This document shows positions 57,674 to 57,918 of a stretch of 64,000 bases of DNA, in pieces (positions within the stretch are counted from its first letter, which is position 1; each line of letters opens with the position of its first letter). The stretch comes from an uncultured bacterium (GTDB taxonomy: Bacteria; Cyanobacteriota; Vampirovibrionia; Gastranaerophilales; Gastranaerophilaceae): the NCBI GenBank assembly GCA_902801985.1, contig CADCKD010000001.1:1-64000 (forward strand). Reading direction: 5' to 3'. A model generated the notes under the pieces. It ran no database searches and was not told the DNA's origin. It saw only the letters and a program-made list of their open reading frames with translations. The position numbers and the translations under genes are program-made.

Positions 57674-57791
57674 GCTCCTCAGAAGGACTCGAACCTCCGA
57701 CCTCTCCGTTATCAGCGGACTTGAATAATTGCTGTTTGTATCACATAAATGATACTTTAATAGCGCTCTATCCAACTGAGCTATGAGGAGC
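57674..57791 (-). tRNA. tRNA-Ile(GAU) with 43-nt insertion carrying an inverted ACAGCAA element
   Basis: Without the insertion (57720-57762) it reads as tRNA-Ile: acceptor CTCCTCA/TGAGGAG (plus a possible G-1:C73), D arm GCTC/GAGC, anticodon stem CTCCG/CGGAG around CTGATAA, T arm GGAGG-TTCGAGT-CCTTC. The insertion lies after nucleotide 27 or 28. It contains GTATCAT-TTAT-GTGATAC followed by AAACAGCAATTATTCAAG. No group I core or obvious bulge-helix-bulge is visible. Confidence 0.75.
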
Positions 57792-57797
57792 ATATAA

Positions 57798-57918
57798 CAT
57801 TCATGGCGAGGCTCGAACTCACGACCTCCTGCTTGACCTATAAAACTAATGCTGTTAACATCACTAAAATGATGAATTCTAATTTGGCAGGTGCTCATCC
57901 CAACTGAGCTACATGAAT
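57798..57918 (-). tRNA. tRNA-Asp-like gene with 48-nt insertion in the anticodon loop
   Basis: Acceptor ATTCATG/CATGAAT, D arm GCTC/GAGC, anticodon stem CCTGC/GCAGG and T arm GTGAG-TTCGAGC-CTCGC form a tRNA. The loop is C, then a 48-nt insertion (57838-57885), then GTCAA, so an Asp (GUC) anticodon is plausible but U33 is not present in the flanks. The insertion has CATCAT-TTTA-GTGATG followed by TTAACAGCATTAG. Confidence 0.7.

What the first reader, a model, noticed from the sequence alone, without database searches (positions are those of the whole stretch)
57674..57918. The same motif appears inverted inside tRNA-Ile and tRNA-Asp as 43-48-nt insertions
In tRNA-Ile(GAU) and tRNA-Asp(GUC) the insertion contains the 3' helix strand, a TTAT or TTTA loop, the 5' helix strand, then (A)ACAGCA. 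This is the free-standing element in circularly permuted order. The insertion sites differ (between 27 and 28, and inside the anticodon loop). Bacterial tRNA introns are normally group I, and these are far too small. Either these tRNAs are disabled, a novel small intron is removed, or the genes yield permuted or circular RNAs.
Basis: partly seen in the sequence, partly recalled or inferred. Interest (0 to 1): 0.88.

Follow-up and report, generated by a model that had tools for sequence, protein, structure and literature searches.

The report
Ro60-type RNA handle inside phage tRNAs
Two tRNA genes of a phage carry, folded into their anticodon arm, the same small RNA hairpin that stands alone next to the phage's Ro60-like protein gene, so they look like tRNA-shaped partners of a Ro60 ribonucleoprotein rather than ordinary tRNAs with a small intron.

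Summary
On the minus strand, tRNA-Ile(GAU) and tRNA-Asp(GUC) carry 43- and 47-nt inserts. Each holds the free-standing element (6-bp stem, two nucleotides, ACAGCA) in circularly permuted order. The cluster adjoins a DUF2828/vWA gene whose predicted fold is Ro60 (Z 17.8 to a Thermus phage Ro60). Across phages CAGCAA/ACAGCA after a stem are the top two of 4096 hexamers beside this gene, and the permuted form inside tRNAs is again top-ranked (43 copies, 34 of 110 loci). A search by RNA alone found 17 such tRNAs (scrambled motif: 0); 13 of the 17 records encode the Ro-like protein, against 4 of 39 controls. I read the element as the Ro-binding handle of a phage Y-RNA family. Handles carry an anticodon hairpin, an acceptor-less tRNA, or a permuted tRNA (the YrlA layout). 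The two tRNAs here are the un-permuted form: handle joined at the anticodon arm, acceptor ends open. A removed mini-intron is less likely but not excluded: excision would restore a complete anticodon arm in 28 of 48 hosted tRNAs, not in this tRNA-Asp. Binding, retention and function (perhaps a tRNA decoy) are inferred. The handle also resembles Dictyostelium class I RNA, below Rfam's threshold.

The parts
57675..57790 (-). tRNA-Ile(GAU) carrying the permuted handle (chimeric tRNA / Y-like RNA)
   Evidence: acceptor 7/7, T stem 5/5, anticodon stem CT|CCG-CTGATAA-CGGAG
57719..57761 (-). 43-nt insert in the tRNA-Ile anticodon stem: 3' strand, loop, 5' strand, AA, ACAGCA, A/U-rich flank
57799..57918 (-). 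tRNA-Asp(GUC) carrying the permuted handle in the anticodon loop; no U33 after excision
57840..57886 (-). 47-nt insert in tRNA-Asp: CATCA-TTTTAG-TGATG-TTA-ACAGCA
   Evidence: the motif is ACGGCA in L001 and GCGGCA in L003
57933..57995 (-). free-standing handle element 1
57607..57668 (-). free-standing handle element 2; inner domain CAGA-CTTTAAA-TCTG is anticodon-arm-like
57494..57597 (-). handle TGATGC-AT-ACAGCA ... GCATCA enclosing a tRNA-like domain (ARAGORN tRNA-Phe AAA, 57507-57577); the domain is called tRNA-Ile(GAT) in L001
53761..53824 (-). free-standing handle element 3
53062..53119 (-). free-standing handle element 4; inner ACATT-CTGGTAA-AATGT anticodon-arm-like; best match to Dictyostelium class I RNA (28.6 bits)
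52420..52487 (-). free-standing handle element 5 (variant ACAGTA)
55972..57474 (-). Ro60-like protein, 500 aa: DUF2828 plus DUF7788/vWA with DxSGS

Best explanation
The inserts are the protein-binding handle of a family of phage Y-type RNAs that partner the neighbouring Ro60-like protein. The handle is a terminal stem of about 6-8 bp, 1-3 nt, then (A)CAGCAA on the 5' side. It is attached to tRNA-like cargo in several layouts: an anticodon stem-loop alone or with a T arm; an acceptor-less tRNA; a circularly permuted tRNA with a closed acceptor (the YrlA layout); or, as in tRNA-Ile and tRNA-Asp here, an un-permuted tRNA with the handle inserted in the anticodon stem or loop and closed by its own loop. 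The last two are circular permutations of one another with the handle at about the same junction. Most likely the handle is kept in the mature RNA, so the product is a tRNA-shaped Y RNA held by the Ro-like protein. Its likely use is to present a tRNA or anticodon arm, as a decoy or scaffold for tRNA-acting nucleases or quality control. Shown: element, covarying stem, gene association, predicted Ro60 fold, layouts, tRNA integrity. Inferred: binding, retention, function.
For: Protein: DUF2828; 'Ro-like RNA binding protein' annotations among 665 phage records with a match; the first 10 PDB rows for the AlphaFold model are all Ro60/TROVE, Z 17.8 to 11.5. Association: in 85 loci not used for discovery, CAGCAA (60) and ACAGCA (49) rank 1 and 2 of 4096 hexamers on the gene strand, ACAGCA 0 of 85 on the other; 75 of 102 loci have CAGCAA within 220 nt upstream of the gene, 0 of 102 on the reverse strand. 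Stem: 22 elements chosen by motif and place only are 100% paired, one column pair AU7/CG5/GC5/UA5, covariation score 0.346 against 0.093 shuffled. tRNA-hosted form: ACAGCA 43 copies in 34 of 110 loci, rank 1. Independent search by RNA pattern: 17 hits against 0 for a scrambled motif; DUF2828 in 13 of 17 records against 4 of 39 controls. Cargo: anticodon-arm-like hairpins in 77 of 216 elements against 9.95 shuffled; strict form 58 against 2.15; T arms 40 against 0.36. Permuted tRNA in a handle: 13 distinct cases, acceptor loops 3-13 nt. The Rfam YrlA consensus shows the same permuted order.
Against: No binding or RNA-level data were obtained. Excision would give a complete anticodon arm in 28 of 48 hosted tRNAs (chance 1.4%), not far from the 204 of 278 intact tRNAs, so a removed intron stays possible. 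Hosted anticodons repeat an intact one in 6 of 32 cases (one of the six is the hosted tRNA itself) against 9.9 expected by random draw, mildly favouring working tRNAs. 36 of 85 loci have no perfect ACAGCA element within 1 kb of the gene. YrlA and RF01414 matches are below Rfam's gathering scores. The nuclease-decoy role has no direct support.
Confidence: 0.68

Rival explanations
1. Removed mini-intron: the handle recruits the Ro-like protein (and an unknown nuclease and ligase) to cut out the 38-54 nt insert, giving a normal tRNA and perhaps a circular handle RNA.
For: Excision restores a 5-bp stem, U33 and purine 37 in 28 of 48 distinct hosted tRNAs, mostly with the cut after position 28. Stem pairs across the insert covary (CG|CCA/TGGCG against CT|CCA/TGGAG). 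An insert-free relative exists: L101 tRNA-Asn against L093, 91% over 69 nt. Hosted anticodons rarely duplicate intact ones.
Against: No RtcB or RNA_ligase match in the assembly (the PF09511 search was uninformative). 20 of 48 hosted tRNAs fail, including the window's Asp. The same cargo occurs permuted with acceptors closed by as little as 3 nt, and as a bare anticodon arm, where excision would yield no tRNA.
Confidence: 0.22
2. Decaying tRNA genes hit by a mobile hairpin; no function.
For: The Asp copy has lost the exact motif in L001 and L003, and its anticodon arm looks degenerate in L003; anticodon arms pass less often than in intact tRNAs (28/48 against 204/278, p = 0.04).
Against: Acceptor 7/7 in 47 of 48, T stem 5/5 in 46 of 48; recurrence in many phages with the motif kept; tight link to the Ro-like gene.
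Confidence: 0.06
3. The element is a processing signal of tRNA operons (spacing or cleavage site), not a Ro partner.
For: Elements lie between tRNA genes in many loci.
Against: It sits beside the Ro-like gene also where no tRNA is annotated nearby (mycobacteriophage LeBron), and its cargo is enriched for anticodon arms.
Confidence: 0.04

Closest known systems
YrlA / bacterial Y RNAs (Rfam RF02553), partners of Rsr/Ro60
   Same: A stem leading into a tRNA-like domain; my permuted class (T arm, closed acceptor hairpin, D arm) has the order of the YrlA consensus; a Ro60-fold protein is encoded next to it.
   Different: Handle motif ACAGCAA instead of the YrlA strands shown; anticodon loops often kept; acceptor open and handle inside the anticodon arm in the tRNA-Ile/Asp class; below the YrlA gathering score.
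Dictyostelium class I RNAs (Rfam RF01414)
   Same: About 6-bp terminal stem, conserved motif just after the 5' strand (consensus CCUUACAGCAAUua), CUG near the 3' end, variable interior; 42-65 nt in D. discoideum (PMC7919456, passages).
   Different: 19.1-28.6 bits against a gathering score of 41.5; amoebae, not phages; the reported binder there is an RRM protein.
Circularly permuted tRNA genes of algae and an archaeon
   Same: Reversed order of tRNA halves in my permuted class.
   Different: Those yield tRNA through a circular intermediate, apparently by BHB splicing (PMC3978253, abstract); here acceptor loops are as short as 3 nt and the cargo sits in a handle.
Group I introns in bacterial and phage tRNAs
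   Same: Interrupt the anticodon arm (recalled).
   Different: 38-54 nt here, no group I match in Rfam.

Membership tests
Y RNA / YrlA family | Encoded with a Ro60/Rsr-type protein | tested here: met
   predicted Ro60 fold, first 10 rows all Ro60/TROVE; association
Y RNA / YrlA family | tRNA-like domain | tested here: met
   for the window
Y RNA / YrlA family | Matches the YrlA covariance model at its gathering score | tested here: not met
   20.5 and 19.1 bits against 69, and on tRNA parts
Y RNA / YrlA family | RNA bound by the Ro-type protein | not testable with these tools
   needs a binding experiment
Dictyostelium class I RNA (RF01414) | Covariance model score above the gathering score | tested here: not met
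   best 28.6 against 41.5, E 4e-4 for an 81-nt query over 4227 families
Dictyostelium class I RNA (RF01414) | Terminal stem plus 11-nt motif adjacent to the 5' strand | tested here: met
Group I intron | Group I core in the insert | tested here: not met
   no group I match over the window at gathering scores or in 51500-58300 at E up to 5; inserts of 43 and 47 nt
Archaeal/eukaryal-type (BHB) tRNA intron | Bulge-helix-bulge at the splice sites and a splicing endonuclease | not tested
   no BHB scan or endonuclease search was run; RtcB and RNA_ligase searches were negative
Permuted tRNA gene | tRNA made through a circular intermediate | not testable with these tools
   needs RNA data

The most novel reading that the evidence does not exclude
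Phages run a Ro60 ribonucleoprotein loaded with a set of handle-bearing anticodon arms and whole tRNAs that mimic host tRNAs and shield translation from tRNA-cutting defences. The un-permuted, tRNA-embedded form is one layout of it, and Dictyostelium class I RNAs belong to the same ACAGCAA-handle RNP class, which would then span phages and eukaryotes.
Probability: 0.27. Interest if true: 0.93.

Novelty: new variant of a known kind. Interest (0 to 1): 0.82.

Why it matters
Y RNAs are known as separate transcripts with a permuted tRNA-like module. Here the module is attached to real-looking tRNA genes, in linear orders that are circular permutations of each other, and the handle occurs over a broad set of phages including ones grown on B. 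subtilis, M. smegmatis and E. coli. It gives a sequence-level definition of the likely RNA partner of the phage Ro-like (DUF2828) proteins. It raises a direct test of what tRNA mimicry by Y RNAs is for, and it suggests a link to the unexplained Dictyostelium class I RNAs. It also warns that tRNA callers miss or misname such genes: neither chimera was called by ARAGORN, and the Aeromonas copies are annotated as plain tRNA-Leu or tRNA-Val.

Tried and rejected
Group I or other known intron: no Rfam match. Chance or repeat artefact: rejected by the hexamer, shuffled and scrambled-motif controls. Unguided folding of the hosted tRNAs was of little use: MFE structures were mostly not cloverleaves, and z-scores ran from -3.28 to 0.47 (some of the eight stretches given were cut short of the acceptor). 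Duplicate-anticodon test: weak (P = 0.06; one of its six duplicates is the hosted tRNA itself, and its list mixes clean and failing copies). Intact against hosted anticodon arms: small difference, and the hosted test allowed any cut, so it is the laxer one. Empty-site search: only 1 of 36 joined tRNAs had an insert-free relative in the loci held. Sequence search against PDB found no relative (one unrelated row at E 0.15). The most abundant RNA region of Listeria phage CKA15 (26,236-26,727) holds no CAGCA handle. PF09511 was uninformative because its controls were silent. TROVE (PF05731) gave no match in the assembly. Rows dropped before counts: duplicate contigs L041-L047, L054 and L062 throughout, and also near-identical L002, L007, L019, L064 and L094. 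Literature: searches listed no paper whose title, abstract start or the passages I read describe ACAGCA handles, DUF2828-associated RNAs or tRNA-embedded Y RNAs. The library lacks most subscription papers, including Chen 2014 and Sim 2020.

Papers, what I saw: PMC7919456, PMC7824862, PMC7790460 and PMC10085705, passages; PMC12282133, passages plus section 8; PMC3978253, abstract and outline; others, search listings only.

Full report
Observation. The minus strand at 57,490-58,000 holds, in order: a free-standing element (57995-57933), tRNA-Asp with an insert, tRNA-Ile with an insert, a second free-standing element (57668-57607), an element enclosing a tRNA-like domain (57597-57494), and then a 500-aa gene (57474-55972). 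The free-standing element is a 6-bp stem whose 5' strand is followed by two nucleotides and ACAGCA. In the tRNAs the order is 3' strand, loop, 5' strand, 2-3 nt, ACAGCA. Inserts are 43 nt (Ile) and 47 nt (Asp). Six perfect-stem ACAGCA elements fall in the 6.1-kb cluster against 0.07 in shuffles.

The neighbour is a Ro60. The 500-aa protein has DUF2828 and DUF7788/vWA domains, and its alignment with 20 relatives keeps DxSGS apart from single substitutions. 665 phage records have a match; many mycobacteriophage ones are annotated 'Ro-like RNA binding protein'. An AlphaFold model from 17 sequences of the window's relatives (pLDDT 79.5) has as its first ten PDB rows only Ro60/TROVE proteins: Thermus phage phiLo Ro60 16.9 and a Trove-domain crystal structure 17.8, human Ro60 14.5, Deinococcus Rsr 14.1 (Z; Foldseek E down to 6.7e-8). 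PF05731 itself finds no match in the assembly, so this is a distant branch.

The element belongs to that gene. I tested 85 loci not used to define the motif: 14 named phages and 71 of the 80 contigs (nine were contigs already held; close relatives were not removed). Asking which hexamer follows a perfect stem of at least 6 bp within 1 kb of the gene, CAGCAA (60 of 85) and ACAGCA (49 of 85) rank first and second of 4096 on the gene strand; ACAGCA is 0 of 85 on the other strand. CAGCAA lies within 220 nt upstream of the gene in 75 of 102 loci, and on the reverse strand in 0 of 102. 22 of the 71 distinct elements printed, picked by kinship and not by stem, pair in 100% of cells; one column pair shows AU7, CG5, GC5 and UA5, and the covariation score is 0.346 against 0.093 shuffled and at most 0.084 when slid. 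Exceptions: 36 of the 85 loci lack a perfect ACAGCA element within 1 kb, among them the Vibrio, Sinorhizobium, Aeromonas and Serratia phages.

The tRNA-embedded form is widespread. In 110 loci a hairpin followed by ACAGCA inside a tRNA context (D arm before, T arm after) occurs 43 times in 34 loci, first of all hexamers. Of 48 distinct hosted tRNAs, 47 have a 7/7 acceptor, 46 a 5/5 T stem and 43 a 4/4 D stem (the parser favours such pairing when it places the D arm and acceptor). Fixed-pattern scans of IMG/VR for a common tRNA D arm, ACAGCA and a T loop gave 17 hits; the same pattern with a scrambled motif gave none. 13 of the 17 records encode DUF2828, against 4 of 39 records holding an intact tRNA with the same D arm (Fisher p 2e-6, or 5e-6 after merging repeated hits). 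This is independent of how the loci were first found. Aeromonas phages such as Aeh1 and PX29 carry one too, annotated as plain tRNA-Val or tRNA-Leu.

What the handle carries. I collected 216 non-identical handles whose two strands enclose a domain, in 86 of 105 loci. The enclosed domain has an anticodon-arm-like hairpin (at least 4 bp, 7-nt loop, U33, purine 37, T loops excluded) in 77 of 216 against 9.95 in shuffles; a strict form (Y-U-NNN-A-A) in 58 against 2.15, most often with anticodons of Lys, Asn, Cys and Ser. T arms occur in 40 against 0.36. Some handles enclose a tRNA without a convincing acceptor, such as L028 4966-5028, matched by the Rfam tRNA model at positions 6-65 of 71. Thirteen distinct handles enclose a circularly permuted tRNA: anticodon arm, T arm, acceptor 3' strand, a 3-13 nt loop, acceptor 5' strand, D arm, including phages of Bacillus, Mycobacterium, Enterococcus, E. 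coli and Klebsiella. 25 further permuted-like hits had no perfect handle, and a reversed-sequence control gave 3.

Relation to Y RNAs. The Rfam YrlA consensus printed runs: outer stem, inner stem, anticodon-stem-like helix, T arm, closed acceptor hairpin, D arm. That is the order of my permuted class. The tRNA-Ile/Asp class is its circular permutation: the acceptor is open and the handle is closed by its own loop. The junction agrees where it can be read, for example ACG|GC in the permuted L075 and in the embedded L084, L088, L089 and L096; only 6 of 13 permuted cases give a clean anticodon arm (chance 4%). The handle itself is not YrlA's: ACAGCAA is absent from the YrlA strands shown, and matches stay far below the YrlA gathering score. 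The handle does match Dictyostelium class I RNA (RF01414: best 28.6 bits, E 4e-4 for an 81-nt query over all families; also in Listeria phage P100 at 23.1 bits), sharing CUUACAGCAAU, a terminal stem and a CUG end, but below the gathering score of 41.5. I treat that as a lead. That Dictyostelium has DUF2828 proteins is recall, not a result.

Kept or cut out? For removal: excision would give a 5-bp anticodon stem, U33 and purine 37 in 28 of 48 hosted tRNAs (chance 1.4%), not far from the 204 of 278 seen in intact tRNAs of the same loci, and one insert-free relative exists (L101 against L093). Against removal: 20 of 48 fail, the window's tRNA-Asp among them (no U33); the same cargo appears with closed acceptors and as bare anticodon arms, where excision would make no tRNA; no RtcB or RNA_ligase match was found in the assembly. 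Pairs across the insert covary (CG|CCA/TGGCG against CT|CCA/TGGAG), but a three-way junction with the handle kept would need that as well. I put retention well ahead of removal, without proof.

Expression. In Listeria phages P100 and CKA15 three free-standing handles follow a TTGACA...TATCAT promoter and lead into the Ro-like gene. A multi-omics study of CKA15 (PMC12282133, passages and section 8) reports three highly transcribed non-coding regions within 2 kb upstream of CKA15_055, an Rsr-like protein, suggests Y RNAs, and lists CKA15_055 among proteins of purified particles. CKA15_055 is the Ro-like gene here. The region whose coordinates the paper gives (26,236-26,727) has no CAGCA handle, so I cannot say that the handles are among the abundant RNAs.

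Function. Anticodon arms on a Ro-bound handle suggest mimicry of tRNAs; a decoy for tRNA-cutting defences is one reading, and PMC7790460 floats a similar idea for YrlA (passage). A scaffold for an RNase, as for Rsr, Y RNA and PNPase (described in PMC12282133 and PMC7790460), is the other. Neither was tested.

Verdict. A new variant of a known kind: Y-type RNAs built into tRNA genes. The element, its gene partner and its layouts are well supported; retention and function are inference.

Noticed in passing
window 53925-54390 (-): What looks like a tRNA-Leu interrupted by a group I-like intron (motifs recalled); no Rfam group I match at gathering score, and a weak tRNA match at 53924-54011 (20.1 bits).
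   Followed up: no
L004 9668, L005 9606, L008 9672, L010 2241, L018 9654: A permuted handle with an 8-bp stem (ATGCGTCATGATCGTGACGCAT-GC-ACAGCA) conserved just downstream of the Ro-like gene but not in a recognisable tRNA.
   Followed up: no
L009 108-350: HEARO RNA (RF02033, 139.4 bits) in a relative's contig.
   Followed up: no
L121 (OR088597.1 26,236-26,727): Unidentified RNA of about 490 nt between tRNA genes; PMC12282133 section 8 reports about 67% of phage transcripts at 40 min on the two putative genes there. It has its own TTGACA/TATAGT promoter and no CAGCA handle.
   Followed up: partly
window 57507-57577 and L001 7904-7977: The tRNA-like domain enclosed by the last handle before the Ro-like gene is called tRNA-Phe(AAA) in the window and tRNA-Ile(GAT) in L001.
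   Followed up: partly
window 57675-57790 against L001 7747: The embedded tRNA is Ile(GAU) in the window but Thr(GGU) in L001 and L003, with compensating acceptor and T-stem changes.
   Followed up: partly
L039 5256-6515: An annotated RNA ligase lies shortly upstream of the DUF2828 gene in Serratia phage BF, whose fetched region shows no clear handle.
   Followed up: no
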